Positions 597 through 24,700 of a stretch of DNA of 64,000 bases are shown here, in pieces. Below the pieces are notes generated by a model. It was not told the DNA's origin, did not search any database, and was given only the letters and a program-made list of their open reading frames with translations. The stretch's first letter is position 1. Every line of letters starts with the position of its first letter. A program made the position numbers and the translations under genes. Source of the stretch: Aquila chrysaetos chrysaetos (taxonomy: Eukaryota; Chordata; Aves; Accipitriformes; Accipitridae); the NCBI RefSeq assembly GCF_900496995.4, contig NC_044009.1, positions 42,741,505 through 42,805,504 of the forward strand. Direction: 5' to 3'.

Positions 597-731
597 CTCT
601 GCAGGAGTGGTCCATCTTGTTGTATTTGAAGTACCCACTTTTGCATTGGCAGAGCGCGACTCCATCGAAGTCGGTGCATTCAGAAGTTTCCTTGTCGCAT
701 TCGGGGTCTTTCTGCTTGCACAAGCTGCCAA
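597..731 (-). CDS. HEG1: HEG1 distal EGF-like exon
   Basis: Forty-five codons, phase 1 at both ends, encode a six-cysteine EGF-like module. It starts [18 protein letters not shown], continues [15 protein letters not shown] and ends NKMDHSCR. This is nearly identical to human HEG1 just before its membrane segment. The acceptor is cttcccaacag and the donor GTACTG. The following exon (ACEDGY... in human) was not found in the 596 bases to the left and presumably lies outside the window. Confidence 0.95.
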
Positions 732-3700
732 CTGTTGGGAAGAGGCAGCCAATATCAGCCCAGTTCTCTCTGAACCCACCGTTGTGCACATTTGCTTTCC
801 CCAGGCATCACATTCAGCTCATGTGCTGCTTTAATCTCTTTTCTTTTTTTTTTAAATAATATTTGTTCCATTAGGAGACAGTCAACATTACACAATGTCA
901 GCATTTCTTACGTATCTACCATCATTCGTACAGGCAAATAGAGGGGGCAAGTAATAAATGCTTCAGCTTGGAGGCAGAAGGAGAAATGAAAAAGAAAAAC
1001 TTGGTTTGGCTCAAGCTGAAACACATTCACCCCCTGAGACAGTTCAACAGATCAATTTTTAAGTTCATAGCAAGCAAAACATTTTGCTCAGCCCAAAACA
1101 ATTTTTTTTCCATTTCAGTATTAAGCACTGCATTTCTTAATTTTTCAAACAAAGAATTTGTCCTTTCATTTACATTACTTTGAAGCAGTGTTTTACTTTA
1201 TAAAGTCAGATTTGTTACAATGAGTATTCAGCAAAACTGTGGGTAAATGATGATAATTGTGTCATCGAATTTACATTTTTGACTGGGAGGTCAGACTAAA
1301 TGGAATGAACAAATGAAAAGATATTCATGAGAAATAGGATTTTATGGAAAATATGTCACTCATTTGGCATTGACCTTTTATAAACCTCTCCCTGTTAGAT
1401 GCATCATCTTTTTTTTTTTTTGATCTGACATCTTTTCATTAAGTACTTACACAAGAACATAACTTGTTTCTTATTCTGCTTATTTCAGGTCAGAAATAGA
1501 CTTTACCAGAAGCACTGTATCAGAGGTAATATCAGGCTAGATATAATCTGAGTGGGTCTACCAAAATAATTTAATGCAATCCGTGGTGGAGTGTGGCTTT
1601 AAAATATGGCACGTTAAAATACAAGCACATGCTAAATTTCTCATCTTCATGTTTACTTTGCCAAAACGATCCGACTACACCCAGGCTAAGCACTGCCGCC
1701 CTTCATCCTCAAAGCCAAACCTCGAAGCCTCGAACCCCAAAGTCACAGAGCTCTGCATGCAGAAGTCTCCCTGCAGGAGCCCATCTTTCAAGGGTGCTCA
1801 CTCCCTGCGTCCTGCAGGTACCTCTCACGCCCAAATCTCCTCTATCACTCCCTTGGAAAGGGAGGACCAGGAGGTGCAGGGCACGGGGCCGCCACCACCG
1901 ACAGGGTCCACCTGGAGAAGGTCCTGCACAACACTGATGTACTTCTCCAGGTCTCTCTGTGCCACAACCACGTTCCCCTTCAGCAGGTAGAAGATCGGTA
2001 CAGAAATCAAAAGCTTTTAATTGTGAACCATTTTTACAACCTGCAACACTGAAATTGGGCAGGCAGGAGAGCGCAGGTCCCCGCGTAGCCTCCAGCAGCT
2101 CGAATCGACTTCACCGGGGGGTTTTGCCTCTTGGCTTTCATGCGGTTTCCCCGACCGTGCGGGTGGAATTAAGACTTATGGGGTTTTGATCTGGCCGGGG
2201 CCCGGTGTCACATCCCAGAGATGAAAGGCTGCCCTACAATGCCTCTAATCCTGTGCTGTGTGATGTTGTCACAGAGAGGCAGATTTCTCACACATGTGGT
2301 GAAGATAAGGCTTGATATCTGTATCCCTTTTGTACTGCGAGGCTCTTAAGATGACTGCCATTTAAATAAGATAAAAAAGATTCAGAGGGGTTTTTCCAAA
2401 CACCAAAATCTTTCTCCCCCTGTTATAAAAGAAGCCAAATAAAACATCCCTTTCCCCTCTCATCACAGTCCCTCCAGATATTTACCTCTGTGGAGCGGTT
2501 TCAGGCTGGAGATGAATTGGCAGGCTTCGGTGGGGGATTTGCAAGCTCGAATGTAGCTTTTCACACTGCTGACAATGTCGTAGAAAGTCACGTTGGATGC
2601 TAAAGAGAACGTGGATTGCACTGAAACATGCACAAAATTTGCCTCCCTAACAGAAAACAAAACAAAACAGCCCTGAGTACCACGGGTCAGTCTGATGTCA
2701 TCGTTAGCACCTTATACATAGGACTCTTATTAACGCAAGCGATGCTTATCACAGACACAATATTACATACATACTGAAACAGCCACGCATTGTAACAGAC
2801 CTTAAAAACAAGACAAACTTACACAGAGAGGTAAATTTGGGGCTGGAAGGGGTGCTGGTAGCTCACGTTGAAACCAGCCATAAATCCCTCCTTTTGTCAG
2901 CTCACAAGCCCGTCCCCAGGCCGCTCAGGCCCCGAGGAGGGTACCAGGAGAGCTGGGCAAGGTGGTCAGCCATTCCCCATGCCCTGCGCTGCCGCTGGGC
3001 CAGATTGAATCAAATCCAGCACTGACTCAAAATGGAGAACGTGGATCTGAAGTTGACCATCCCAAACAATCGAGTTTCTCATTCTTCCCCTGGTAGCCTT
3101 AGCCTTACCTGGTCGCCTTAACGGTGGAGTGGTGGTACCCTGGCAAGCCCGACAGCGATGCATTGAGCTGCAAGGAAGGAGAGAGCAGCTGTTAGTGTCC
3201 TGGGAGATGATGGAGGGAGGCAGCCCAGCGGGACGCAGCACGGGACGGCCCTCCTGGGTCACCAACACCATCCCCTGCGTTCGCCAGAGCTGCCTGCTGA
3301 GGCTGAGGGGGTTCTGAGCATCCCAGCAGTTCATCTGCTCAATAAGAAAGATGCGCCATCCTGTTGCTAGCAAGGGACGGCCAAAGTCACCATCACGCAG
3401 CCTTGGACAGGAACGACGACCCGGGGATTTTGACATGAGCATCTGCCTGGGGCCCCACTGTGCAATGACTGCAAAGGCCAAGGATGAGCCAGAAGCCAGT
3501 GGGGATAGAGCCCCGTGCGAGGCCGAGCTCAAAGCGGCACCCTTGGAGACTGCCGATCTTCCAAGGAGCTTCCCTCCCCCTGGATCCGCGCGGTTGTTTG
3601 TGTTCACTCCTCAGCACAAGCCGTGCAGGCAGCATCAAGGCGACTCACCGCAGCTCCCCCCTCCTTTGGCAGCATCTCCACATCACCTACTCCAAAAAGA

Positions 3701-6700
3701 GTTGGGATGAACAGCAGCCAGCCCAGGAACTGCTAACAGGACAAACTCATGCATGTAATGATCTCGCTAAAAAATGCATAGAGATGTACCTATCCCCAGC
3801 CCAGGGGTCTTTTTGGAGCAACTGATGGCACAGCATATAGGGAAGCCACCAGATCAGCCAGTGCTTGCTCTCAACTGACCGAGGGCCACATGGTTGTGAT
3901 AGCATGGCTGGGAAACTCCACCAAAAGGAAGGTATGTTTGGGTGGGTGCTGCTGCTGTGCTTCATCCCATAGGGTTTGGCTAAGAGCAAGGTGGCACCAC
4001 CTGCAGTCCAACCCACCCCAGCACCTGTGAGATTTACTGATGAACGGTGAAGCCCAGAGTTACTGTTTTAATGTTTGACCTTGGAGGAGCACTAATGCCC
4101 TTCTGAGGTCTGGAGAAGGTGATGCAGCCAGAAGACACTAGGAAAGGATGGAGGCTATAGAAGCGTGAACCCAGACACACCACTTCATGAAAAAGGCTTC
4201 AGGATTTTCTGGGCAGATGTGCTGTCTTAAGCCCCATAGGAGCCAGATCACTCTGCTGGTGTCTTGACAGCCAGGGCAGGGCAGGGGAGAGAAGCGTGCT
4301 GAGATTTAAAAGTGTACATGTCACCAGTCCTACTTACACCAGACCAGGATGGTTCAATGATTAAAAAGGCTAAATCCATGCTACAGAGTCTTGTGGCTTC
4401 CCATGACAACCGTAAGAGAAGCGAAGGGGACCTGTCCCATCAGCATTGCCAAAGTCCTGGCAATGACACTCACCATTGACAGGATTTCACCCTCGACGTG
4501 GACGAGCTCTGCATACTTCCCATGGGTAATATTAAGTTTCAGGGGGACCTGGCCGATAAATATTCTTACTAAAAAGGAGAATAAGACAACTTAGTGGGAA
4601 CATATGTCTCTGTGTCATGTGTAGCTATGGTTTCATCTGCCTTACACGAGAGATTGTTTGCATGGAAAACCCTTTCATGCAGCGAACAGAAAACTCACAT
4701 CTGAGAGTCACTGCCCCAATAAAGCAAAGTCCCATTCTTCAGATTTTTCCCAAGGGTTGCTGTGATGTTCCTACAGCCCCAGTCAGATTCCAGAGCTCAA
4801 TGCTGCTGAACAGCCAGCATTTCACGGCAGTGTTCATACATTTCATATAGAAACACAAACTAATTTAAAAGGACCCCCGAACACAGAGTGAGCTGGGTAA
4901 ACTTAGTTACAAGACAGTTCCAGGTACCAAAGCTATTTATAATAATTTGGGGTAAACGTGTCAAATCTCTTGCCCCTCCCTGCAATGGAAAGAAAGCAAA
5001 TCAGCAAGTCAAAATAAAGCACTGTAGAAAGGACATTTTCATTTTTCAAATTGTTGGACAGAATGAGCAATGACATTTGAAAAGAGGTCCAAAAGATGCA
5101 TTTTTCCGTGCTTAGATTCATATTTGATTCATGGCAGCAGAATGCAATAATCGGAGTTGTCCAGACTCGGAGAGATAATATCCCTAAATCTTGTATTAAG
5201 TGTCATGAGATACTCGGTGGAAATGAGAACTCAGAGCTCCAGTTTTATGTTCTGCCAGAAAAACAAATACAGTTGCAGATAACATTATAAAGCCTCCAAT
5301 TCTTTCCCATTTTTTCCCATCCACAGAGCCTATCTTCACCACAAATTTTATACCAGACAGTTCTAATGTAACAACTCTGGGTAAAAATAAGATGAGAATC
5401 ACCTTCACAGTATTTATATAAGCTGCCCGTATCCCAGTTCAAGGCATAATCAAAACAACTCTCTAAATTAGAAGCTGACACATTCCAACTTGAAGAAATG
5501 TTTCAAAACACCCTTCAGGGACACCTCACCCATGTTTCCTTAGCAAAATTTCCATGCTTCTAATCCTCACTGATTAAGGGTCAGAAGAAACTCTAGCAAA
5601 ACAAATTCCCCTTTACAATGGGACATTGTCAGTCCTTGAGATTGAGAGTCCTCTAATAGAAAGGAAGGGGTCAGAACCTGAGTTCCAACTAATAACTGTG
5701 CTGCATGAAAAATGCTAAAGGTACGAAACAAGACCTTGATCTTACAAAGACTTTCACGGCTGCTTAATTTTCTGCACATGGCTGATCCCACTGAAGCCAG
5801 GTTACACAATAGCCCCACTCACTTCTCCCAAGTCAAGCACCGTCGCCCGGGTTTGCAGGGCTGGGAGCTACGATAAGCTGCTGAATGCTTTTTGGGAGTT
5901 GTAAAACACATTAGGAACAGAAGGGGCACATCTGTCCTTACTAACAAGCCTGAGCCCCCCTCTCTGTGGCTGTGTTTTTAAGAAACCCTCAGCTATCACT
6001 GTGCCTGCTCCCCACGGCAGCCCAACACGACAGGCATTAGACATTGCACTTGTATAAACAGTAAAAGGCTCTTGTTAAAAGTGGTGGTTGGGAGGAACAT
6101 TAAGCTCCCAAAGTAGTCTGAGCCTAGGTTAATTTATTTTAGAAGATTACAGATAATTATTTCCATCTTTTTCTCCCCTGGTTTTTCACTTTTTTTTTCT
6201 TACCTAAATTGCACTTTCCTTTTTCCAGCTCATAGCCAAGAGGACACTGACAGATATAGGAGCCACGGGTGTTGTTGCAGGTGGCCAGTGCAGGACAAGG
6301 GTTGGAAAGACATTTATCCACATCTACAAAAGCAGAAAAAAACCCAGGCTAGAGTTACAGAATCACAAAAATCATCAACTGTTGGGCTAAAAAAGATCAG
6401 CTTGGCTCCTCTTCTGTGACCCCCTGAGCATTATCAGATGCTTCATTGCATCATTTGCACTTACTATTTAGCCTGTTCTTAATTATTCCGTTGGAGCTGA
6501 AAGAATAAATACAAACCACTTTCTTGTGAGTATTCATTCAAAAGCCCTTGGGACCCAGTGTCGATCCATGTTAATATGAACACCCAGCTTGTCTGCAGCA
6601 CTGCTTACCTGCAGATCTCAGGGTGCTTTTCAAAGACAAACAACCCTACGGTTATGGATGGAGAGACCGAAGAAGGGACCTCGACAGACAGAGCTAGACA

Positions 6701-9700
6701 CGGGAGCACAGGCTCCTTCACCAAACTCCTGCCCTTTTCATCCAAGCCCTGTTTCCGTGATCCAAAGCTAGTGCTTGAACACTGATGCAGTCTGTAGGTT
6801 GCCCAGTGATGGTGGAGGCACACCTGGCTGCCCTCACCTCCTTTACCGGGGTTGCAGCCTCCTCCGTGCCAGGCTGGGGATGGTCACAGCAGCGATACCT
6901 GTCTGTGCCAGCGCTCATAATGCACCTCCCGCTGCGTGAGCAAGGGCTTGGGAAGCAGACACCAACTGTGAAATACGGAGTATCAGGGGATTAATGACTG
7001 TAGTCTCAGATGCTTCAGAGATTAGCCAACTCAAACTGCAAATTCTGGAGAAGATAGCCAATATTTCCCTTTGAAAAAAACCCACGTCCTGGTCAAAAAT
7101 GATCCTCTCGCTGTGTGTATGACTCACAAGAGCACATATGCATGTCACACATGTGTGCAAGGGCAGACCGTAGGCAGGGCTGTGGACTTGTCGGCGACAA
7201 ATTGCTACAAGACAAGCAAGACAGCTTACACACCACTCGTACCTATTTTGCGGCTGCTGCCAAGCACTGCAGCAGAGGCAGGAGGGATGGGCTTTGTGGT
7301 TAAAGCAAAAAGCACGAGAGCCAAACCCGTGTGTGTATTTCTGACAGTGCCGCGATACCCTCTGGCATCACGCAGGCCCTGCAGACCAGACAGTCCTGAG
7401 CCGACCTCTGCGTCGGGACACGCACCATTTGACGCAATGTCCGTGTCTCGACTAGCCTGGCATAGCTACCTCAGCATCAGCGAGAAGGAGATTTTGCTGA
7501 TCTAAGCAGCCAGAAATGGGTGGGCATATTTTAAAACATTGGCTTTCGCTTTGCCATCCTTCAGTGTACAGCGGGGACAAGGGCAGCTTCTTCTCTCACG
7601 GCATTGAGTGCCCACATACAAAGCACCATGTCCAAGGCAGCAAAAGGATCTTTTGCCTTCTGGTAAATGGCAAAACTTGGTATTTAAAGGAAAGACTAAA
7701 TTGGCAAAAGTGTGAATCAGTTGGTAAAAGGGATATGTTACCTTAATTTTTCAATTAAAAAAAAAATCCATTCCCCTACAGTGAATTTTTTTGCATGAAG
7801 CCATAGCTATAATTAAAACCAATCAGCCTGAGGAATAACCTTTAAATACTTAATTACTGGATGAAATATATACTATTGCCAGTATTTCACCAAGATTAAC
7901 GCAATTAGCACACACAATATCCCACAGTGGCACAAGGGCCAGGCTCCTGAACTTTAAACACACAGTCGATTTCCATTCATATGAAACTTTGGTCAATGTA
8001 TTTACGTGAGAAGATACGGAGCCTGGCAGCGGTAATAAATGATTGTGACAACACACTCAGGAAAGCTACAGCATGTAGCCTACCAGGAAAAGCAACAGGC
8101 CCTTGAGTAGGAGGTTATTTAGTGAGGTGGGGAGAAAATGACCATAGGTCATTATAACAGAAGTTCCAACACAAATACCAAGTGCTGGCCAACGGCCTTT
8201 TCTCACAAATAAGATAGATATTGATCAATATTGATTGATATTGTCGACCGTTCAACAAATATAAAATGTATCCTATGTTTACCTGGAAGGCCAGTCAGCT
8301 TTGTTTTCTTAAAATTCTCAAATTTCAGCTTATCATTTCTATCAGAAATGTTCACCAAAATGCTCACCCTTTTCCAGCAGTTCAGCTTGATTGCTAAACC
8401 CTTAGCGTAAAAATACCAACACGGAGACTGAGTTCTTATCCTCAAATGCTGCTGACCACAGACTTGTCGTAGATACATACATAACCCTTCAAAGACCCTT
8501 AAAGTGGCACCCAGGTGTTCCTAGCCCCCTTGTCCCCAGCCCCACCACTGATGAGCACCATTAGACGTGTTACCTGTTGCCGGAGACGACATCCTCAGCC
8601 TGGCTGTGCTACTCAACAGAGGAACAGTGGTTGATTTGGTAGCAGCCAAAGTAGTTGCAATGCTGACAGTGGTCTCGCTGGTTGGAGGGACTTCAGAAGG
8701 ACTCGTAACAGGAATGTTTTCCTCGGTGACTTTACCAGGCCTTGCAGTGGTGGGATCCACAGCTTCTGTGCTTTCACCAGTGGTATGCACGTGCTTAGTG
8801 GCAGCTGGCGTTTGAGCTCTGTGGGCTTTCATGGTGCTAGCATCACCTGGGGTTGGCTGGCGACTGGCCAGCGTTGTCAGCACAGGAGGATTCACCGTGG
8901 TCAGTGCTACCGCAGGGACGGTGACACTGCGGTTTGTTGCACTTGGTGAGGCACTAAGGGGAGCACGCGTTGGCCCAGCCCGTGGGGCATCGCTGGCCGT
9001 GGTGAGCCGCGGCGTTGCCTTCCCAAAGCTGCCCCCCTGAGCAGTGGCAGCTCTCGGCAAGGCGGTCTCCGTTACCGTTGCGGGAACGGACGCGGACACG
9101 ATGTGTCCACCAAGCTGCTCTGTGGGTGCTGTAGGGAGAGGAGACCCAGTGGAGGTGAAGGCTGTGCTGTTTTGGGGCTGGTGCGTGACATTGAGCTTGT
9201 TGGAACCTCTGGGAGAGCTCCCAGCCACGGCGGCCGTGGAGGGCACCCGCCTGACCACAGTCGTAGCTACAGAGGTGCTGGCTTGATCACTGTCGTTGGA
9301 CTGCGAGACAGATGATGGTGACGAAAACAGAGGCAATAAAGATGCTAATGAATAAGATGGGGAAAGCAATGAGGAAGTGGGCAAGGAGGACGACAAAGCC
9401 TGCAGAGGGGGGGAAGATGCCATCACAGAGGACGAGAGTGGCTCAGATGATTCCGATGATGTAAACAGATAAGTTGGTGGTGGTGTTGATGACAGCGAGT
9501 GATGCAGTGATGACGGTGAGGAGGAGGCTGGAAATGCTGATGAAGATAGAGATGGTCTACCAGTGGTCAACAACTCAGAGTCAGTGTTGAAAAGAGTTGT
9601 ATTTTGTACGCTGCCTGCAGAAGCAGAAGTCAACGGTTTGGAAGAGTGTACCAGCAACGGCTCTGTAGATGGTTCAACAAAACTGCCATCGCTGGATACG

Positions 9701-12700
9701 TTGCTCCTCCTGTCCTGCACCACAGAAGATTTTGATGAATCAGAAGGGCTGGAAATTTCAGCAAAAAAGGTGGAACTTTCTGAGGAGTCAGCAGAGGTGC
9801 TGCTATTTGAGATAGACAGAAGGGTCCTTTCTCCTCCTCTGGTATATGTGGTTGAAATGTATGTGCCGTCCGTATGAGAAACCGAGGTCCTTTTCTCAGC
9901 ATCAACGCTACTGACTGGCTGATGACTACTTGAAAAGCCTGGAGTAAAAGGACAAAATATATTAGAAAGACAGAGTAATGTGAAAGTATTTTGATGTCAC
10001 ATTAAAATCACTTGCTAAATACATAAAATGTTCTTGTCAGTGAACTGGTCCATGCTCTTCTAAAAATTTAGAGCACCATCCAAGCATGGATATTGAATTA
10101 GGAGACTTCTGCACTCCTTAACTGATTCTAAAATGATGAACTCGGACAGACAAAAGGCTCCCGTGAAACTTGTAGTTTTCTAAAACACTGTTCTTCCAGT
10201 ATTGCTTTTCTAATGTGACTGAGCACTTATCGTTCCATGATATTTTGTGGCAAGCTAAGCAGGAAAAACCATCTGTTCCCTTTATCACTCAGAATTTTTG
10301 AAATTCATATCCTCTCCCTCTCATCCTCCATTCCCAACTAAAGAATATCCATCTTCTTCAGTCGATTTGTTTTTAGACACAGTGAACTTCATGCCTCTGC
10401 AGGATGAAATTATTACATTATGTTAATTTGCAGCTTATCATGAACTCATTGATTGAAAACTTTGCAGTCAGGAAATCCTAAATGAGTAGCACATCAGTCT
10501 GCAAAAAAATCAGATTATTTAGCATAAAAGGTGCAGTCAATCTTCTAATACGAATTTCAGGATGTGCAGCTATGTTCATCAATCTCTAAAAATAAAAAGT
10601 AGGGTATTGATAATTTGGTTTAATTCTAGAATTGACTTAGGTCATCATGAAACACTTCTGAAAGCATCACCCAAAAGAACCTGGTTAGGATGCAAAAAAA
10701 TAATGCGGCCATCAAAACAGAAGAGTTTCCCTGCTCAGGTTCATGGCTTCACTTCTGGAATGATTCCCCAGCTAGGTGGGGTCTGGCTTTGAGTCCTTTG
10801 ATGAAAACAGCCCCCTGAGTGAACCCGCAGGTGGCATCGCATGTATTAATGAACGAGAACTTTGTATACAACATAGATAAATGCAGGACAATGTGAACTT
10901 CCCCCTCCCAAAATGTACACCGGGAGACACTAACTTGTGAGATCATTTTGGAAAGAAGAGTAAGTAGGTATCTTGGAAGAACGTGTGAAGAGCGTCTCCG
11001 TCGCAAAGCCCGCGAAGCCCCCGCTGCTGGTGGAGGTGTTGGCTGTCCGGCTCTGCTCCACTGACGCAGGCTGAGCCGGCCCTGGAGAGCTGGTGGTTTC
11101 GGCATCGGAAACGGAGCTCTCCGTGCCGCCGGCCAGCGTGCCATCCGTCACCGAGTGCGGCGTCCTTTCTCCACCGCCAGCAGACGTGGATGAACTGTAC
11201 GCAGCATCAGTGATGGAGCTGGACATCCTTTCCCCAGCACTCGAGCTGCTTAGGGAGTGATGGCTGCTGCCCACGGCTGGAATAGGAGCAAAAAGCAGGC
11301 ATCTGATTTTATCATCTCAGAGCAGAGAGCACTTGTGAGTTTTACAATAATTCTGTTCGGAAATGCAGATTAATAAAATTGCACAGGTAAACACAGATTA
11401 AATACAGATTAAGTAGGTCTTATACATCTACCACCTTGAATGTGGATTTAACACACAAAGCCTACTCCAAAGAAACAGAACTGTCCAAATACAGAAGGAC
11501 AATTGGTACCATTACAGTCATAATGGCATATTTATGTTATTTATAATTATCACCCCAACCCAGGCGGGTAGTAGATGTGTCCTACAGCAGAAAGCTACTC
11601 ATCTCATTCCTGAGACTTTTTTGTTAAGCATCATCAGCTGCAGATATACAACACCAAGGAGCAGAATCACCATTGCTTATAAATCCTGCTCATGACACCT
11701 GCAACAGCTCTGACACGTGTTGGTGGTCATATCAACCCCACGGAAGAAGGGAAGGGAGAGGCAGTGGGTTTTTTCCTAATTCAAATGCCATCCCAGAGTT
11801 CAGAAAAACTCACTGGAAGGTTCACCAGCGGCTGAGAAGTAGGTGGAGGCCCTGGATGAAAGGGTGACCTTGGGCTCTGGGTACCCTGCTTGGCTGGAGG
11901 AGACGTGTCCCACTCCAGGCCATGCTGTGGAGGATGGGAAGGGGCCGGTGCGGGGCTCCCTGTCTGTGTCCGGGTGAGATGTGGGGCTTTCCGCTGCTGT
12001 GCTCCACGTGCCATGGTTAGCTGCAGCCTGAGATGTCCCCTCCTTCTGGCTGGAGAGTGTGGTTGAGATGTACATGGTCTCAGTAGGAGCACCAGAAACT
12101 CTTCTTCCCCTCTCTGGAATTGCAAAGAAAAGATATACATGGATATATACATAAAAATATATGTTTTGTATATTGATAATACCTTTGAGGTCTCTACAGG
12201 GACTAAAATATGAGTATTTCAATCCCCACAGCAGAGGTGGCACTTGGTGATCAACATCACTTATTTGCTAAGTGGGGTTCCCAGGCAATCTGTACTTTTC
12301 CCCTTTACACCAGAAAAATAAAACAGATTAGGGTGCATGGCATTTCCGAAGGAGAACAGTGGCAGGGAGGTAGGACCTGGTCTTGAACGTCCTGCAGAAA
12401 ATTCCCTTCGGCAGATCAGTGGGTTTCAAACCAGCTCTGTTGGGACCCTGGCAGCAGAGCTGAGGCTGAAACACACGATAACTGGGATAAAAGCGGCGGC
12501 GAAAGATCTACCGATCCCTTGCCACATCATGTGCCAGGCTCCCCCGGTTGGAGGGCTGAGGTCAAGGCTCCATAGCAGCCTTCACAGGTGGCCCAGAAGA
12601 GCTGCCTGGCCATCCAGTTCCCAAGAGGAGAAGAGCTGCCCCAAGTACCGTCCGGTGAATAACTGACCAACCATGCAGTGCTCAGACGCCCTTCACTAGA

Positions 12701-15700
12701 AACCAGGTTTACTAAAAAGGCAAATCTAGTTTAAAGCTAGAAAAGGGAAGGTGAGAGCTCGGGAGGGGGGCAAGGAGGAGGGGTGTCCTCCACAGCAAAC
12801 CAGAAAACCACAAGACCCACCTGAAGCACTTGGTGAAGGCGAAGGCACAGAAATGCTGGGAGAAAACGCAGGCACCGACTTCGTTGGAAGCTCACCGAGT
12901 CCTGCACCACTCTGCGAAGCATCGCTCTGCCTCGCAGGCTCTGTTGCCGATGAGGACGGCAGAAGGACCGTGTCCAAGGAGCTGGTGCAGGGTGGAGCGG
13001 GAGGGGAGCTCCCAGCCGTGCTGGATGCCGCGTGGGCATCTGACACGGGCACTGTGCTCCTCTCCCCACCGCTGGTGGCTATCGCTGAGCTGGGCGTACT
13101 GGTGCGAGGGGTGTCGGGCAGGCGTCCTCCTGTAGCTGAGGTCCCTTCTGCTGAGAAAGGGCAAAGCAAAATGGATTTATACACCCTAAGCTATAAACGG
13201 GTGGGCGTGCTCTCTTCCATCACGACCCTTAGGCTGACGGCACAGATACAACGTGGCAGATGATCCAAACCTGGAGAAAATGCTAACTGAAGAAGCAAGG
13301 CTTTCTTGTGCAAGGAGGGACTGCTCACAGGAGGACACCCTGCAGAGGGCACTAGGAACAAGTCATGGGAGTGCTGTTGGGTTTGCTTCTCCTCCACCCT
13401 GCTCCCGGTGCCGCAGCCCAGCCGCGGGCATCACGCACCCGTGGTGAGCGAGGTGGGGTTACAGCGGCACGGATACTCGAAACAAAGCATGGCAGGCTTG
13501 TATGGGATCAGTAAATACTGCATTTGCATCCCAGGGCGAGAGTAAGGAATGACTGGAGTTGCCTTCTGCTTGTATAAACACAGCCAGCGGGACAGTCTTG
13601 AAATTGTGCTGTCTCAGAAAACACACCAAAACTTGGGGCCAGACTGCTCTTGCAGTAAGGCTGGGTTTTTCTGGTGACTAAATGCAAAAAAACAGCTAAT
13701 GCATTTTTCTCTGGAAGTTGAAATTTTCTTCCATAATGCCCAGTGACATTCTGCAGCATCTTCTAGCATGCCCTCACTCCTCCATACAAAGCAGACATTT
13801 GAGGTCTACAGGTAGAAGCCCCACGGGGATGGGCAGAGCTCACCTGGGGAAGTGCTTTCCGAAGAAGATGGCGAGCCTGTGAGCAACAGGTCTGTGGACA
13901 ACATGGTGGCACCTCTGCCGCCACCACCCTGGGCTCCCAAAGAGCTCTCCTGCTCTGGAGATCTGACGTTTTCGGTACCAGTGGTGGAAATCTCTGTTGT
14001 TTGGGCCAGTCTGGTGCTGGCTGGCAGAGACCTTAATGTCCTCCCTCCACCCTTGGTGGCTGTCGTGGAAACAGAGGTACTAGTGGTAGGGAAATCGGTT
14101 CTTCTCTCTGTTGACAGGATGCTGAGTGACACATGGCTGCTTCCAGTAGCTAAGATGTGATAAAGAAACAATTTACATTTTTACACATGTGAAACTACAA
14201 ATAAACAGACGAGCTTTCTTGTAGTAGCAGCCAGAGGCAGCAAGTACATGCACAAGTAGAAAATATGAGAAGATGTCAATCCAGAGAAAATAGGAAATTT
14301 GCGAAGATGTGAATCCTTCCTACAGAAATTTGTCTTCTAAAAACCACGGTTTGATGCCAAGAAAAGTGCTGTTACATAGAAACTGCTGAACTACTAATGC
14401 TGTGCACTTGATTTCACCATTATGTGCCTAAGTGCACTCCATGCTGCTAGAACAAACAAATACCCTAACAACCCAGAAAAGTCTGGAAATCGGTTCAGAC
14501 AAGGCACAATGCTGATCAGTGTGAAGCTCTTAGAGAAGAAGTCTGAAGAAATGGGATCGGGGGATCAGACCCCCTCGGCACTGCAGCAGACCAAACAGCG
14601 GTATGAAGGACCTCAGAGAGCACATTCAAAGTTGCCTTAAATTTGTTGAGCTGGTTGGTTCAATTTCTGGGAAGCAGCATGGTCCAAGGGGTAGGACAGA
14701 GGGCAAGAACTGAAATCTGGTCCCTGGGACTGCAGGGACACAGTCTAATCCTTGCTTGCTTAGTTCTCTTGCCTATAAAATGGAGATAGCAACTGGAGAT
14801 AGTAAAAAAAGAATCGTGATTTGAAAGTTAATTATTTTTCTTGGCATAATGAAACTTTCCACACATCTGCCCTTTCTGTAAAAAGCCCAAACCACATTTT
14901 TTGGTCAAGCGAGAGCTGAAATATTTCAGACACAAAATCACACACATCCTTCCAAACAATATATCCTGCATAGCAGAGAAGAGTCAGGCAAGTGTAAGAT
15001 ACAGTAACAGTCCTCTTTTTACTCACAAGAAAAATGGTATTTCACTCCTAACTTGAGCTCACCTGGGGAAGGACCTTCCGAAGGAGAGTGTGCTAGTGAA
15101 GGGTCTGCCACCCGCTCAGTGAAATCTGTGATTTCTCTGGACCCAGGAACTCCGTAGGTGTCTCTCACAGAAGACACGGATGAGGATCGGATCGTGCCCA
15201 AGGTCCTGTACGTGTCACTACTGGACGTGGAGACTTCTGCTGCCCATCGGCTGGTGCCTGTGGCAGACCCTGGGGGCCTCCCGCCGCTGCCGGTGGCCGT
15301 GGCTGCAACGAAAGTGCTGGTGGGAGAGGAAGCAAGGGCGTTCTTCTCTGTTGTTGAGCTGTTAACTGGTCGGTCGCTGCTTCTGACACCTAAGATACAA
15401 TAAAACCGGGTTTGATTTATGCGTATTGAGCTATACCTTTGAGGGATTGTTTGTACAGCGTACATTTCTACACTGTTCGTTGAGAAGCTGAATAGACCAA
15501 GCTCTCAAGCTGGAAAAGGTGCTGCTCTGGGAAGAGGTGAATCCCTTATGTTCAAGCACATGTGGCTTACAAAAAGTCATGAAAATCTCAACTGAAACCC
15601 ATGTTTTTTAGCTGCAGGCTGTGCACAATACCCAATTTATGCATTTAAGCTGCCTTTGAGCCTGTTTAAATAAGGAGTATACACCTCTAACTTCAAACCA

Positions 15701-18700
15701 AACCTAGAGGATGAGCTAAACCAGGCCTGGTTTACATTTTCTAGTGACAGTCCAGAGAGCCAAGCTGCTGTCTTAGTGCTGGGCTGACGGCCGAGTCCCC
15801 CCCAGCATCGGGCACGCAGGGCCGGACACAGCCTCACCCATAAGATGCTCAGAAACACCGCGGTGCCCCAGCCTGGTGTTTGACCCAGCCTGATTTACCC
15901 CACATTTAGCAGGCGTGCCGCCCCAGGGCTCTCCCAAACCGCAGCGCTGGGGATGCCAATATTTCACCAGCTCACCAGGAGCAGGAGCTGCACTCACAGA
16001 GCAATGGGCTTAATTGTGAATTGATGGTGAATGGTGGGGCAGAGCTTATTTGGGACCACTCCAAGGGGACAGGGCGAGTCAGCACTGTCGTGGCTGTGGG
16101 GAGTCCCAAAATGCCGCCGCTCTTACAGACCAGCCTGCGTGGCAGACGCAGCACCAGGCGACGGCTGCAAATCGCCAGCAAACGTGTCTCTGGCAGGGAA
16201 AAAGTGCATGCACTTATTTCTAACCGATGGCTGCTTTTCCCAGCATGGGAGTTTCATTAGCAATGAGGACACTGATGTTTTTCACTTTTTCACCCAAAAG
16301 CTGAGATCCACTCCCACCCTTCCCACCAGCCCCGCTGCCAGCCCGATGCAGCCGGTAATAAAAATATCCATGTATCCAACAGTGACTGATGGCCATATCT
16401 AAAGAAAAACAGCGTGGGGATGCGGAATCTTGCTCAGCCCCAAAGCAGCCAACTTTCAGACTAACAAATTTACCTCTGAAAGTACTTTCGGAGGCAGAGA
16501 GGGAGCTTGTGAGCAAAGGCTCCCCGGGAGGCTCTGGGAGATCGGTGGCTTCCCGTGAGCCGTTAGGACGGCGTGTCCCGGTCCCCGAGGAAGAGAGGGT
16601 CCCCCGCAAAGAGCTGGTGGGGTCGGTGCTGGTGGCAGAGCCCCTCGTCACCCTGGCTGTGCGGCTGTTTGCGGGGGACCCCGGTGCCCCCGCTGCCACG
16701 CTGGGTACGTCAGCGCCGCGGGCGTCCGAGTGCAGCGTCGCCTCTTCTGCAGCAGGGATGCTCTTGGGTTCGTAATTGCTGCTAAAGGCTAAAAAAAGGA
16801 GAAAAGAAATATAAAACTGCATACACTGTGAATGAAAACAGCTGGGTAGGCTTCATCCCGCTATCAGTAGATGTACACAATGTATGTGTGAATATTCAAT
16901 ACGGAAATATTTAATACTGGGAAATCATTAAGACAGGGGAAAAAATGGTCTCTGTATAGGAACTCATGAAGTTATTGCTTGCAAAATTCAACTGAAAGTT
17001 TTCAAGGAAAATCTATCCTCCTCTTCCAACAAGAATAATATTTATCCATACTTTCATTTCTGTGAAATGTTTTTAAATGTACAGAATGTGCCAAATACAA
17101 TATTATTCCTCCTTTCTTTAAAATAAAAAGGATGTATTTTGTTTATAAAGAGTCTTTAAATAATGTTCTGAGTTATACAGCTAGCTATCGAAACTCACTC
17201 GTGGAAGCGCTTTCCAAAGCAGACGGTGAGCCTGTGAGTAACGGGTCTGTGGCATCTCTGCCACCACCACCCTGGGTTCCCAAAGACATCCCAGGGGACT
17301 GGGTCTGGTCTGAAGAGCTGGTGATTTCGGTACCAGAGGTGGAAATCTCTGCTGCATCGGCCAGCCTGGTACTGGCTGGCAGAGACCTTAACGTCCTCTC
17401 TCCACCCTTGGTGGCTGTTGTGGAAACAGAGGTGCCGGTGGTGGGGAAATCTGAAACTCTCCTCTCCGTGGCCGAGACGCTGGATGGATGGTAGCTGCTT
17501 CCAATGGCTACGGCACAATAAAAAAACCTGGATTTATACATATGAAATTATAAACAGATGGATCCATTTTCTTCCCAGATGCTTACAGCGCACATGCAGA
17601 TATTAAGCATAGGAAGTTTTCAATCTAGACAAAGTGCTCTTCTGGAAAGGCATGAATCCCTTCATCGCAGGAAGACCTTGCACAAAACCCGGGGCTCGCT
17701 GCCAGGACAGCACGGCTTCATGAGAGCCACGGCGGCTCGGCCAGCGGGAAACCACAGGGGACAAGGACTGCGGGGACTTGCCTTTAAACCCCACCTTTGC
17801 TCTAAGACTAGTGGAAATAGGCTCAGGCACTCTCAGTTATTTTTTTGTAGCTTGAACACGGCATCAAACAACGAAGGGGGGGAACCTGAGTGCGGCCACA
17901 TTCCCATATGAGCCTGCAGCTCACTACACATCCCAGGGCTTAACGGGACACAAGGAAAAATGCTTAAGGAAGCACAAAATAGGGTAAAACAACAAATCGT
18001 AGACTAACCGAGCTCACCCGTGGCAGTGCTCTCTGAAGCTGGGTGAGAAGGGGTGAGCCGGTGCTCTGCGGAGGACGCAGGGAAACGTTCCCACGCTGGG
18101 GCCACCGAGGAGGGTGCCAAGGCCAGGGACTGAGCCGCGGAGCCGGGCGCTGCCCTTCGGATACCGGACTTCGGGTTTTCTGCAGCCCCAGCTGCCGTGA
18201 CAGAGGGAAGGGATGTGTCAGTGTGAGAACCCAATGCTTTCAATAGTTCATGTGGAGTGGGGCAAAGTCTCCGTTTTCGAGAGCTCCAGAAATTAGCTGC
18301 TTGCAAAGCAAGCGAGGGGAAGCCGCAGAGCCCAGGAATCTCGGGGTTTTTGTCCTGTACAGGTTGTTGAAGCACAGGCATCTCACCCTGTCTAGCCGAG
18401 AGCAAACCCACCCGGCATGGCCGTGAGCGTGGGTTACCGACACAGCTCAGGTGGGACACACAGCTCAGGTGGGGCTGGGACCTTGCCTTTGCTCTGCAGC
18501 TGGCACTGAACCAGCCAAGATACTTCACAGCTGCAGATGCCCACCCTGCAGGAAACATGGTGATAAGGTCCAAAGATCCTTTTTTGGTTTTTTTAAGTGG
18601 AAAATGTTGGGGGTTTTTGGACCAACTGATTTTTTCCGTTGCTTTTTCCTTCTTTCAGCGGGGAATGTCAGCTAACCATCCAAATAATAACAGAGCGCAT

Positions 18701-21700
18701 GCAAAACACAGCATCTTCTCTGTTTCAAGAAAGGAAAAGCTATATAAAGGCTTCTTAAAGCTATAAAATAAATCCACGGGCCAGCAAAGCTCACCTCCAA
18801 AAGCGCTGTCTGTGGCAGGCGATGCTGTGAGCGAAGGGCTTGTGGAGTCTCCCGTGACATCCCTGGGGTGTAGCATGACATGATTTGCACCAGTCTGGGT
18901 ACTGGAAGCTTGGGGGGAGGACTGGGGCTTTCCAGAAGAGCCAGGGAAGGGGGTGCTGGGGAGGGGCTGCACCGTCCCCCCGCCGCTCCCCGAGGGGCCG
19001 GGTGAAGTGGCTGCAGTGCCCATGGGAGGGCTGCCAGGCGGCTTCGTGCCCACCCAGCCTCTCGCCAGTCGAGAGGGGCCGCCGGTGCCTGCAAGGCAAT
19101 GGGGGAAAGCAAATGAGAGCACAGAGATGGGCTGAGCTGCCCACCCAGCATCGTCCGCTGTCACCCTCCGCCTCCCCCTGCAGCCCACAGTTCCCTCGTC
19201 TGTCCTCTGCCTACAGCAACTTTGTGTTTGGGAGCTGCACCAAGTAATTCATAATTTTCAAGGCCAGGAGAAGCCACACGGATCCTTCTCTCCATCTTCG
19301 TGCACGAAGCGAGGCAGAAAACTGCCCTGAGCACATGGTGAGGATGGAGGGCCGGATCCAGCGCACAAATCTCTAGCAGTGCAGCGGAGCCAGGCTTAAC
19401 CGATGCCCGGTTTCTCTGGGGAACAGCATCCACCTTGTTCCCAGGCTGAACTGGGATGGCTTACCTGGGCGACGAGTCTCCGCAGATGAAGGTAGCAGCA
19501 CTGTCCTCGTTGCGTTGTCAAACCCCACCACATCCTGGGCCTCGCCGTGCCCGCCCAGCACCCTCTCAGCCAAATCCGTGCTGACGGCTGCCAAAACCAG
19601 CGGCGTCTTCTCGGCAGATGGAGGGGTGCTGGGAGAAGCCAAAGCCCTCTTGCCTCTCTCCCGGCTGCCTGCAGCACGGTGATGGCTTCCAGCAGCTAGA
19701 AAGCAACACAGAGAGGGTCATCTTCCCCCTGGACAAGTTAATTTGTCTCGGCTGGGGCAGCAGCAGCATCACCCGCAGTGGTACCCAGCCCCACCATATG
19801 CAATAGGTAGGGTCACTGCTGCATCCCCCGCGTTTCCTCTATTTAACGCAGAGCACACGGCAAGAGGGATTGCTGGGAACAGAGGGTTTCTGGCACAAAA
19901 AACTATCGGCATTTAAAAATTTGTCTTCATTTGTACATGGCAAAAGAAACCCAGATTTTTTTTAAAAAACATTAAAAATGCAGAAGGCACTAAGGAGGTT
20001 ACATCAGGACAGCCAGCAGCTGGCAGCCTGGGCATGCCAGCTCCACACTTTAGTCCCTAAGCAGAAAAAAATGAGGAATTAAAAAATTAAAGAAAACCTC
20101 TATGCTCATATCTCAGCAAGACACTTATTTCACCCAGGCATATTAAGATAAAAAATAAAGTGGGGACAGGGCAATCAGCCCAGCCTTGTCCTTCTGGTGT
20201 GGGAAACAGGTTTTGGTTTAGTGCATGCTTAAAAAAGTACACTGGTTTACTCATGACCACAGTCCCACCAAATGAGAAGATTATGAACAAGCCCAAAGGT
20301 AAGTGTTCACTTGCACGATTTCCACGTGAGGACCTCAGCTACAAATCATGACACGGCTGGTCAGATATTTTTAACTCAGGCACTTATAATCTAGGTTGGG
20401 TTTGTGATGGGGTTCAGCTCCTCCTGAGAGGAGGCATGGGGATGCCGGGGTCTCCGCTCTGCACGCAGCCTTCAAGCTCCGTGGATGGGCAGGACTCTCT
20501 GGAGTGCTGCTGGGTGGTGAATAATGACAACAGCCGCTCACGAGAATCACCTTCATTGTAATGTTAAAAAAGACCCAGCTTTCCTGGGACTGGATTTCTT
20601 CCAAAAATCTGAATTTCTAGCAGCAGGTGGGAATACTTCCTAACCCACCAGCTACGCTCGGTCCATGGGCTGGGTACGGCAAACAGGGACACTTGCATCA
20701 ATAAAACTCACCGGGAGGATGGCTGTGGGCAGGCAGGTGGGTCACTGTCCCAGCAGACAGGCTGTCCGGGGATCCTGCTCCTGGTGGGGTGACATCCCCA
20801 CCACCGGTGGGGGGACCAACGTGCCCCATGACCCCACTCGCCGCTGGCACCGCACCGTGCCTGGCAGGCAGCGATGCCCGCTCCCTGCTCCCAGCCAGCA
20901 TCGTCACCACCTCCACACTGTCCATGAGAGCACCAGAAGTCCTTATCTCCATGTCCGAACTTCTCCTCGCCTGATGGCTGCTTTCGACGACTGAAAGAAA
21001 AAACAAGAAAAAAATTAAAATCCCATCAGCACAGGACGTGCAGGCTTGGCTCATTGGAGTAACACTGAGGCCAAGCTCTGATCTCATTTACACTAGAGAA
21101 AATTTTGCATAATCAAAACACAGACATGAAATTTATTTTTGGATTCATACCAGTGGAAATTAGATCGGTCTGTGGGGCCAAATGCTGAAACCCACCTTTG
21201 TGCACAAGATTAATGCAATTCAGCACCCCCATGCTTTTTGTATGTTAGGAGAAATAATCTTTAAAGGAGCAAAAAGAAAGTCTTAAACAAATAACCAATG
21301 GAGATGATACATGCCGTGTGGAGTCCATGGGAGGAGTGTGTAGGTCTCCAGAGCTGATGGCCAGCTAGAGCCCAGCACAGCCCGTGTGCCCCATCCCGAG
21401 GGCGTGATGGGAGGGGGCTGGGCCCCACAGCTCTTCCCCTCTTTCCGCTCGGCCAGTGCTTGCTGGATGCCTCATCTCGAATCCTACCACCTCCAGAGAC
21501 CCGGCATGAAGCTGGCCGAGAACTGCAGGGCAAACAGGAGGGTTGGCACAACTCATCCAGCCACCACAAGGCACCGGGACAGAAGAGATCAATGTATGTT
21601 GTGGATTACGCTGGCCATCCAGGTCCTGAAGCACCACAAGGTGATGGACATTTTGGTGTATCTGACATTAATGTCTACCAGAACATGAGAAAAAAGATGG

Positions 21701-24700
21701 AGAAGTTTGTGCACCTGCAGGTCCATTTTCTGTGAGCAAACATGGCCGGAGCTCCTGCTCCAACCTAAAAGTGTTCGGTCTGCTCTCTTGCTCCTGCTGG
21801 AAGGCTGCTCCAAGTTCCCACCTCTCCCATTATCCAGAATAATTTTCTTTTTTCATTAGAAAATGAATAAACAAACACATTTATGGAATAAATGTTGGTT
21901 CCCAAGCCAGCATAACGCTTTAGCTTAGCTAGCTCTTCTCCTCCCTCCACTTGCTTCCCACTGTGCCGATGTATAACAGCAGCAATCTCATCTCCTCTTT
22001 GCACAAGTTTCTTCTGCATTTCTACCATCTGCTGTATCTCATGGACCCAAAAATGACTTCTCCCAGGGATGTCAATAGGCATTACATGCTTTACGGGATC
22101 TCCAAAAGCACACAGATGGCTATGTGCAGCTCTAGAATATAAACATGTTCCCAAATCAGGTCTTAAGACATTACTCAGTAGCCAACTTCTTGGCTCAATC
22201 ATTAACACCGACTGCCGGCAGCAGCAGCAGCAGGACTCGGTGCTGTAGCTTCAGCCTTGGGTCTGTCATCCAGCCTGATACTGCCTGGAGCAGAGCATCT
22301 AGTGACAGCTGCCGTAAGCAGTTCCAGTGAGATTTGCCGGGGGAATCGGGGTTTCCAGCCCGTGGTACCAGCCAGAGCCGTGCAAGGATTTCCCTGCACG
22401 TCGGTCCCATGAAAACCAGCAGCAACCATCCCTGCCCCATGTGAGAGCCACGAGGCTTGGCTGGCACTGCAGCCTCAGATGCTCTTCAAAGCCCACAACA
22501 AGTCAAAGTGAGTCCAAATCATGGCTGTGTCATCTGAAACAGCGAGATCCCAGTTTTGCCCATCTTCCTTATAACCAAAATGCAATCTCTGGGCTGGAAT
22601 AGCCCGACGCACGCTCCACTTGCTGAGTGGGCAGAATGGGAGCCTGGCTAGGGAAACTGCAATGTAGGGTCTGAAGTCTCTCAAGAAATTGAGAAAAATC
22701 AGATATTTGGGGAGGGGAACTCTCCCCACTTTGCAGCTCAGAGATCCACGAGATCTCTGGGACATGTCGTGCCTGTTGCGCACATGGCATCTCAAAATAG
22801 GGTTGTGGGTGATACACAGGCAGCAGCTAAAGGCACCGCTCAGTCTCTGCCCGAAAGATCTGATGTTGAAGGTTAAGCTTTGCACATCTCTCCTTGGCCT
22901 CCAAGCACTTTCTGTAAGAAAGCTGTGCCTCAGAGAAACACCCACGGGACACCTACTCCTCCTTGCCTTGAGTGTCTCCTTTGGGGTTGCTGTACCTGCC
23001 ACACCAGAGGTGGCAATTTCAGGAGTGGTCTCCTCTACCCACCTGCAATAGCTTCAGTGGGAACTCAACAAGAAAAAAGAGACACGTAGGTAGGACAGTC
23101 TGCATTTCATCCTGGCAGTCCGAGCACCACGAGGCCGAAGGAGCCAAGAGCCGCAGTGGAGCAGAGCCCCTTGGGTGCCTTTACTGAGAGCCCTAGCCGT
23201 GGCTGCGATGCCCACCTCGCCGAGCACACTGAGCAGCCACTGCCGTCTGGAGCCCACTGTGAGCCACCTCCTGTCCCATGGAACAAGCGGCTCCTTGTCC
23301 CCGTTTGGATGAGGGGATGCAAAGTCACAGGGGACGCTTGCTATGCTCATTTGCAAGCCAATACCCAGCCTGTAATTGTAAGCCGCAAGTCCATTTATAG
23401 CAGCCCCGATGCTGAAAAATCTGGGTGTGCTGGAGGGCGGCGCACTGAATTTCTCTCCGTTCCGCTCTTGCTAAAAGCTTTCAGCTGTGTAACCCATGCT
23501 TACTGTGCCCCAGCAGCCAGCTTTGCTACACAGAAAAAAGGCAAAGCAGCAGATGCTTAAAGAAACCCTTAGGGGATGAGTGTAGACAGGGAAATTTGCT
23601 TTCTCAGGTTGCCAAGTCATATGTCAACAAGGGCTCTGGCCAAGCACACTAAAATATATAGCGGGGCACTGCAGCAGGCATTTAATTGCCACTTCTTAAA
23701 AATAACCCTGGAAATGCCAGCAAAAACCCTCAGCTACGACCCTTGATTGAATGCAATCTGTTCAAAAGTAAAATACTGCTGTTTGCTTGTCTGGTTGTTG
23801 TTCGCCCTGCAAATCCACCTCGGAGTTTTCTCTATCCTCTTTTGGCTCTGCAGAGCGGCTGGGAATAAACCGAAGCAAAACCCTTCCCCTTATCATGGGC
23901 GCCAGCAAACCTGGCTTTGAGTGCAGCCAGGGAGTGGATGGGATGAATAAGAAGGTATTATTTACACAGGCTTTTTAGAGTCATCTGGCATTTTTACGTC
24001 TGCCCTGCAAGGTACACCAGGTCCTGGTGCAGGGAGGAAATACTCTCGCCAGCATGGGCTCAGCTCCCCAGTTTGGTGGGTGCAGAGCATGAGCTGGGCT
24101 GGAAAAGCTAACCCACAGCATGTAGTAAGGAAAGCTGAAAAAATCAGGCTGTTCAACAAAATAGACATGAAATCTCAGCTTATCACACAGCCGTCAAGCC
24201 TGCCAGAAGTGCAAGACCACCACAATCGTCTCCTCTGACTTGCCTGCAGAAGTTAGCCTTCAAAGATGACCCTTCACTGAAGCAGGTGGACCAGATGCAA
24301 GCTTCTTCCAAAAAAATACACTCAGGACCATCTGGCCTTCCCTGATGCATTAAAGGCTTAAAGCAGAGGGGCCCTTTAGCTCAGGTACCCATTTGTCACT
24401 AACAGTTTCGTCACATCCTAAGCTGCCAACTGCTTTCCGCTGTTTAACTCCACGTGACCACAGCTGTCAAGAGAAATATTTGACTTCCAGTGCAAAACCC
24501 TCCTGCCACCCGCTGGACCAGTGTTTTCCTTCCCAGTTAAAACTAGCAGTGATGCTCACCAGACAGGTCGAGGCTTGGAGTTACTTTTTCTTCGCAAGCA
24601 TAACAAGTCCACGGCTTGCTGGGAGCTGAGTTATAACGCGGCCAGGACAAACAGATCAAGTTCCAGCTGATTTCTCGAGGCTTTGGGTTTGCCCCTGGCA

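What the first reader, a model, noticed from the sequence alone, without database searches (positions are those of the whole stretch)
10935..20990. Tandem exon duplication built a long modular mucin stalk in HEG1
Eleven small exons, all phase 1 at both ends and all multiples of three, share a common start, core and end. From memory, human HEG1 encodes its stalk mainly in large exons with only one or two such motifs. The array adds about 1,080 codons and allows copy-number or splicing variation without frame loss. I know of no description of such an array in HEG1.
Basis: partly seen in the sequence, partly recalled or inferred. Interest (0 to 1): 0.85.

Follow-up and report, generated by a model that had tools for sequence, protein, structure and literature searches.

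The report
Ancient duplicated-exon array in HEG1 stalk
A heart and blood-vessel surface protein of birds, HEG1, carries a long stalk built from eleven in-frame exons, most of them recognisable copies of one unit; the array is real, but it is old (crocodiles, turtles and lizards have it too) and probably just lengthens a sugar-coated spacer.

Summary
Eleven exons at 10935-20990, minus strand, are all phase 1-1 and multiples of three (3207 nt, 1069 codons). The gene model gives 1771 residues without a stop, 94.7% identical to Haliaeetus albicilla HEG1 with 2 gap columns. Against a profile from turtle and alligator modules only, 9 of 11 exons beat all 2000 shuffles; E4 is marginal, E2 unrecognisable. 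Introns upstream of E5/E8 and E5/E7 are also homologous, so this is exon duplication, not chance Ser/Thr richness.

The reading needs correcting. The array is no bird novelty: 3 of 3 crocodilian and 3 of 6 scanned turtle entries show 12 modules, squamates 2 to 12. Human HEG1 is published with five Ser/Thr-rich exons (2-6) before the large one, exon 6 being alternatively spliced. Two human papers say HEG1 lacks tandem repeats; in sauropsids it has them.

New here: E5 and E8 keep exchanging sequence in birds, apparently by gene conversion (93 of 93; among 28 exon pairs the next best reaches 16 of 104). The role as an adjustable, disordered, glycosylated spacer is inferred.

The parts
40259..40430 (-). 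HEG1 exon 1, coding part (signal peptide), ends in phase 1
   Evidence: tblastn with the Falco HEG1 N terminus, 94.7% over 57 residues; frame check
20712..20990 (-). Module exon E1 (279 nt, phase 1-1); module 1, position conserved in alligator
   Evidence: 0 of 2000 shuffles; z 9.9 to alligator module 1
19465..19695 (-). Exon E2 (231 nt, phase 1-1); no significant module similarity, assigned by position and phase
   Evidence: 356 of 2000 shuffles reach it; probability 1
18795..19088 (-). Exon E3 (294 nt, phase 1-1); partial module (3' part), modest support
   Evidence: 0 of 2000; probability 33
18018..18191 (-). Exon E4 (174 nt, phase 1-1); short, weak module similarity; skipped in an annotated crane isoform
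   Evidence: 3 of 2000; probability 18; P0010 lacks it
17199..17507 (-). Module exon E5 (309 nt, phase 1-1); conversion partner of E8
16474..16788 (-). Module exon E6 (315 nt, phase 1-1), diverged
   Evidence: probability 91.9
15063..15389 (-). Module exon E7 (327 nt, phase 1-1); upstream intron homologous to that of E5
   Evidence: z 10.1
13844..14149 (-). Module exon E8 (306 nt, phase 1-1); conversion partner of E5
   Evidence: 147 nt at 86%; z 12.4
12821..13150 (-). Module exon E9 (330 nt, phase 1-1), diverged
   Evidence: probability 94.1
11814..12113 (-). Module exon E10 (300 nt, phase 1-1); best match is alligator module 10
10935..11276 (-). Module exon E11 (342 nt, phase 1-1); by position the counterpart of alternatively spliced human exon 6 (inferred)
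8574..9938 (-). Large Ser/Thr-rich exon (1365 nt, phase 1-1) that begins with a twelfth, best-conserved module; matches human exon 7 in size
   Evidence: (140.5 bits)
6204..6323 (-). Calcium-binding-type EGF exon
6889..6969 (-). Remnant of the EGF1 exon that turtles, mammals, most squamates here and gavial keep; absent from every bird entry retrieved
   Evidence: tblastn E 1.1e-5, 27 residues at 37-41%; 0 of 232 bird entries carry EGF1
4474..4568 (-). SEA-like region, exon 1 of 3
3109..3167 (-). SEA-like region, exon 2 of 3
2486..2646 (-). SEA-like region, exon 3 of 3
597..731 (-). Last EGF-like exon inside the window; transmembrane and cytoplasmic exons lie beyond position 1

Best explanation
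Shown: the segment is the mucin-like stalk of an accipitrid bird's HEG1, coded by eleven consecutive phase 1-1 exons followed by a large exon that starts with a twelfth module. Well supported: the exons descend from one roughly 100-114-residue unit by tandem exon duplication before birds arose, because crocodilians, turtles and squamates carry the same units, the flanking modules (1, 10, 11, 12) keep their positions between eagle and alligator, and some introns are homologous. Since then bird copies have decayed unevenly while E5 and E8 have been re-homogenised by gene conversion from about codon 20 onward. Inferred: the modules are disordered, O-glycosylated spacer units that hold the EGF and SEA-like domains away from the membrane-bound base of the glycocalyx, and because each exon is phase 1-1, skipping or duplicating one changes stalk length in steps of about 60-110 residues without touching the KRIT1-binding tail.
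For: Gene model without stops, 94.7% to an annotated HEG1. 9 of 11 exons recognised by an outgroup-only profile; 8 of 11 by profile-profile comparison. Twelve modules in 3 of 3 crocodilian entries and 3 of 6 turtle entries scanned, up to 12 in squamates. Positional best matches for 5 of 12 eagle and 6 of 12 alligator modules. Upstream intron homology E5-E8 z 12.4, E5-E7 z 10.1. Conversion signature E5/E8 in 93 of 93 bird entries tested, with 28 exon pairs as control. Same-species isoforms differ by internal stalk blocks in 22 of 23 pairs. No predicted structure over the module and stalk part of a turtle HEG1, residues 1-671 all pLDDT under 50 and coil. Human HEG1 is heavily O-glycosylated and its exon 6 is alternatively spliced by RT-PCR.
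Against: E2 is not recognisable as a module and E4 hardly; their place in the array rests on phase and position. Middle modules do not match one-to-one between eagle and alligator (7 of 12 off-diagonal), so equal copy number (11) may be partly coincidence. Only 3 of 66 upstream and 1 of 66 downstream intron pairs reach z 5. The isoforms are database predictions; I saw no RNA reads from any bird. Spacer function and any link between length and signalling are untested. A low-confidence structure model also results from a thin alignment.
Confidence: 0.78

Rival explanations
1. The similarity is only shared composition: independent Ser/Thr-rich exons that look alike because they are low-complexity.
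For: E2 and E4 are at or near chance; E1-E4 show little similarity to the other exons inside the gene; one control slice of non-module stalk scored 12.7 bits.
Against: Composition-preserving shuffles never reach the scores of 9 of 11 exons; non-coding upstream flanks of E5-E8 and E5-E7 are homologous; positional orthology with alligator.
Confidence: 0.07
2. A recent, lineage-specific (bird or raptor) expansion that built a new long stalk.
For: E5 and E8 are 86% identical over 147 nt, which by itself looks recent.
Against: Crocodilians, turtles and squamates have arrays of similar size; the E5/E8 likeness is confined to the part after about residue 20 and recurs separately in palaeognath, galloanserine and neoavian entries, which is conversion of old copies.
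Confidence: 0.04
3. Mammals lost modules rather than sauropsids gaining them: a long array is the amniote state and the human five-exon stalk is a remnant.
For: Opossum and pika entries still show 3 recognisable modules including the one in the large exon (both entries look N-terminally incomplete); human exon 6 and exons 2-5 have module size on average.
Against: I have no amphibian or fish array to set the direction; squamate counts vary (2-12).
Confidence: 0.4
4. The eleven exons are mutually exclusive or tissue-specific cassettes, so that no single mRNA carries them all.
For: Same-species isoforms lack E2, E4, E5, E8, E9 or runs of them; E4 was found in 43 and E2 in 95 of 121 bird entries.
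Against: P0001 and many other bird entries carry all eleven; E6 was found in 120 and E11 in 119 of 121.
Confidence: 0.08

Closest known systems
Human HEG1 (PMC5374711, section 7 and passages read; PMC6155162, passages read)
   Same: Same gene by sequence of the conserved C-terminal part; same exon plan: proline-rich exon 1, small Ser/Thr-rich exons, a large exon of 455-456 codons, EGF, a three-exon 'unknown region', EGF; a small Ser/Thr exon (6) is skipped in frame.
   Different: Five small Ser/Thr exons (2-6) against eleven here; EGF1 (human exon 8) is only a remnant here; the human papers state that there are no tandem repeats.
Transmembrane mucins such as MUC13 and MUC16 (recalled, apart from the structure hits)
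   Same: Long Ser/Thr-rich stalk of repeated units before EGF and SEA-like domains, one membrane span; human HEG1 lies next to MUC13.
   Different: Repeats here are separate exons with diverged copies, not a minisatellite inside one exon; HEG1 has a conserved tail that binds KRIT1; SEA identity only suggestive.
Tandem exon duplication with symmetric phase (general mechanism, recalled)
   Same: Phase 1-1 exons, in-frame skipping, intron homology between some copies.
   Different: Unusual here: conversion between two non-adjacent copies that spares the first ~20 codons.

Membership tests
HEG1 | Full-length match to named HEG1 proteins across exons | tested here: met
   1771 residues, 94.7% to P0001, 2 gap columns
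HEG1 | EGF-type domains around a conserved juxtamembrane region | tested here: met
   194-residue query finds 430 proteins, of which the 120 listed are bird HEG1 entries by name or as unnamed proteins; EGF1 itself is lost
HEG1 | Neighbour SLC12A8 | tested here: inconclusive
   An amino-acid-permease exon (PF00324, E 2.8e-6) lies at 61317-61553 on the same strand; the other candidate (58224-58946) had no Pfam match. The name SLC12A8 is inferred from the human map
HEG1 | Transmembrane span and KRIT1-binding tail | not testable with these tools
   These exons lie beyond window position 1; present in P0001
Tandemly duplicated exon array | Copies similar beyond composition | tested here: met
   9 of 11 exons against shuffles; E4 marginal, E2 not
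Tandemly duplicated exon array | Symmetric phase in every copy | tested here: met
   11 of 11 phase 1-1
Tandemly duplicated exon array | Homologous flanking introns | tested here: met
   For E5-E8 and E5-E7 clearly, E4-E6 and E1-E8 weakly; not for the other pairs
Transmembrane mucin | Ser/Thr/Pro-rich repeated stalk | tested here: met
   Mean S+T 31%, S+T+P 41% over E1-E11; repeated units
Transmembrane mucin | SEA domain | tested here: inconclusive
Transmembrane mucin | Dense O-glycosylation | not testable with these tools
   Reported for human HEG1

The most novel reading that the evidence does not exclude
Sauropsid HEG1 is a flow-sensing receptor whose reach is set by counting exon modules: splicing picks how many disordered glycosylated units separate the EGF/SEA-like head from the rest of the glycocalyx, and gene conversion keeps chosen modules (E5/E8) exchangeable, so stalk length is a regulated and evolving variable.
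Probability: 0.15. Interest if true: 0.65.

Novelty: new member of a known kind. Interest (0 to 1): 0.45.

Why it matters
HEG1 is needed for heart and vessel integrity and is described as flow-sensitive. Its ectodomain is usually treated as a featureless, repeat-free mucin stretch. If the stalk is a modular array of skippable units, the effect of stalk length on HEG1 signalling can be tested by exon removal, and the sauropsid genes give a natural series of lengths. The E5/E8 exchange is a clean case for studying conversion between exons of one gene.

Tried and rejected
MUC13 instead of HEG1: I first suspected it because of the EGF-SEA-EGF order; rejected by the HEG1 matches.

Upstream intron 1 (20991-40258) searched for further coding exons with N-terminal parts of turtle, crocodile, falcon and rhea HEG1: apart from exon 1 and one hit of the rhea query to E2 (E 3e-5), only low-complexity matches.

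First module scan failed because of an invalid option and its null table is void; repeated. The first count of EGF1 by pattern missed many entries and was replaced. Whole-exon comparison of E5 and E8 against eagle shows paralogues closer than orthologues in only 7 of 95; the signal appears when the first 20 residues are set apart. In one search, 93 bird entries with both exons over 85 residues were used, of 121 bird entries mapped; rhea served as reference and kiwi was left out. These entries are related, so 93 of 93 stands for a few events, not 93. In one search the pair E9-E10 gave 16 of 104 and two further pairs 1 each; I take E9-E10 as overlap in mapping, unchecked.

Of 860 and 493 and 430 proteins found, only the best 120 of each search are listed, so squamates and mammals are thinly sampled and no amphibian or fish was seen. 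In one search, 30 of 285 proteins were scanned; one turtle and one alligator entry supplied the profile, so their counts are by construction. Turtle P0270 gave 15 hits, some of them split, P0246 11 and P0268 8.

Direct PDB sequence search with the SEA-like region: 0 matches. Pfam on the EGF/SEA-like region: matches below the curated cut-offs only.

The genome search was asked eight times and never answered, so the rest of the genome was not examined.
Full report
What is there. The gene runs on the minus strand. Scoring splice sites with recalled, approximate matrices gives eleven exons between 10935 and 20990: E1 20712-20990, E2 19465-19695, E3 18795-19088, E4 18018-18191, E5 17199-17507, E6 16474-16788, E7 15063-15389, E8 13844-14149, E9 12821-13150, E10 11814-12113, E11 10935-11276. 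Each is a multiple of three and phase 1 at both ends; together 3207 nt, 1069 codons. They are followed by a large exon, 8574-9938 (1365 nt, also phase 1-1), an EGF exon, three exons of a conserved region and a further EGF exon. With exon 1 (40259-40430) the chain reads 1771 residues without a stop and is 94.7% identical, with 2 gap columns, to HEG1 isoform X3 of Haliaeetus albicilla (P0001). The window is therefore from a close relative of that eagle, and the automatic annotation of a second genome uses the same exon borders.

Is the repetition more than chance? I cut 24 modules from a painted-turtle and an alligator HEG1 (start motifs chosen by eye) and made a profile without any window sequence. 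Nine of the eleven exons score above all of 2000 shuffles of their own letters; E4 is reached by 3 of 2000, E2 by 356 of 2000; the start of the large exon scores highest (140.5 bits). Three slices from the rest of the large exon, a negative control of similar composition, scored 12.7, 2.8 and 2.2 bits, against 18.0 for E3 and 8.3 for E4. Profiles of each exon across birds against the module profile give probabilities of 91.9 to 99.7 for E1 and E5-E11, and 33, 18 and 1 for E3, E4 and E2. So the array is real, but three of its members are partial or decayed, and for E2 the assignment rests on phase and position.

Duplication, not convergence. Intron sequence 26-225 nt upstream of the exon is homologous for E5-E8 (z 12.4) and E5-E7 (z 10.1), and weakly for E4-E6 (5.4); downstream only E1-E8 reaches 5.6. 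The other 63 of 66 and 65 of 66 pairs do not reach z 5.

Age. The same units fill the HEG1 stalk of other sauropsids. At 12 bits or more, including the module in the large exon, I count 12 in 3 of 3 crocodilian entries; 12, 11, 12, 12, 8 and 15 (some split) in six turtle entries; 2 to 12 in ten squamate entries, some of them incomplete; 7 to 10 in nine bird entries, where copies have decayed; and 3 in each of two mammals that look N-terminally incomplete (30 of 285 retrieved proteins scanned). Eagle modules 1, 5, 10, 11 and 12 find the alligator module of the same number as best match, the other 7 of 12 do not; alligator against turtle gives 6 of 12 on the diagonal. The ends of the array are thus old and fixed, the middle has been reshuffled. 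Eleven small modules in eagle, alligator and painted turtle suggest, but do not prove, a conserved number.

Human comparison. The published human gene has Ser/Thr-rich exons 2-5 (residues 107-530) and 6 (531-630), exon 7 (631-1086), EGF exons 8 and 9, an 'unknown region' in exons 10-12 and EGF exon 13; transcripts with and without exon 6 were both found in mesothelioma lines by RT-PCR (PMC5374711, section 7 and passages). A second paper places exon ends near residues 304 and 529, so exons 2-6 average about 100 residues (PMC6155162, passages). Both papers say that HEG1 has no tandem repeats.

Exchange between E5 and E8. Over 147 nt these two exons are 86% identical. In birds the first 20 residues of E5 and E8 follow the species tree: they are less like each other than like their counterparts in rhea in 92 of 93 entries. 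The rest of the exon does the opposite: E5 and E8 of one species are more alike (median 65%) than either is to its counterpart in rhea (56% and 55%) in 93 of 93. Rhea and kiwi show it most strongly, 93% and 92% within species against 57-63% to the eagle counterparts. Because neither rhea exon is closer to its neognath counterpart than the neognath pair is to itself, one event in the rhea line cannot explain it; at least two separate homogenisations are needed. The entries are related, so the count stands for few events. Of 28 exon pairs tested the same way only E5-E8 behaves so throughout; E9-E10 reaches 16 of 104, two pairs 1 each, the rest 0. A whole-exon comparison to eagle alone shows it in only 7 of 95.

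Isoforms. In 22 of 23 same-species pairs of database entries that I picked, the difference includes an internal stalk block of 63 to 228 residues; in birds these blocks coincide with E2, E4, E5, E8, E9 or E8+E9, in most turtles they are 114 or 228 residues, one or two modules. Some pairs also differ by partial blocks of 26-75 residues, and one of 23 differs only in the tail. These are predicted isoforms; I saw no reads.

How it probably works. A turtle HEG1 with two small modules is predicted without any secondary structure over its stalk, residues 1-671, as expected for a mucin-like spacer. Mean S+T is 31% in E1-E11 against 40% and 38% in turtle and alligator modules, and N-glycosylation sequons fall from 30 and 31 (12 modules each) to 4 (11 exons), so the bird stalk has become less glycosylated on asparagine (prediction only). 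I infer that the modules set reach and density of a glycosylated spacer and that phase 1-1 borders let length change without harm. That HEG1 acts with KRIT1 and Rap1 at junctions is from PMC7729028 (passages); flow sensitivity is from PMC13066811 (passages) and the title of PMC5794256.

Verdict. Real, correctly located, correctly named; older and more widespread than thought; three of eleven copies weak; mechanism inferred. The E5/E8 exchange and the correction of the 'no tandem repeats' statement are the parts that a specialist would want.

Noticed in passing
6851-6969 (minus): Decayed EGF1 exon: a stretch matching turtle and gavial EGF1 (E 1.1e-5), with a short weak continuation in another frame (E 0.22); EGF1 is absent from 232 of 232 bird HEG1 entries.
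   Followed up: partly
2486-4568 (minus, three exons): HEG1's 'unknown region' between EGF domains is predicted as a SEA-like alpha-beta domain; support is suggestive only.
   Followed up: partly
13844-14149 and 17199-17507: E5 and E8 evolve together in birds after about residue 20, apparently by gene conversion.
   Followed up: yes
10935-20990: Bird modules carry 4 N-glycosylation sequons in eleven exons, turtle and alligator modules 30 and 31 in twelve.
   Followed up: no
61317-61553 (minus): Exon of an amino-acid-permease family gene, by human gene order probably SLC12A8.
   Followed up: partly
P0282 and P0283 against P0271: Alligator and saltwater crocodile entries lack EGF1 while the gavial entry has it; isoform choice or loss not resolved.
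   Followed up: no
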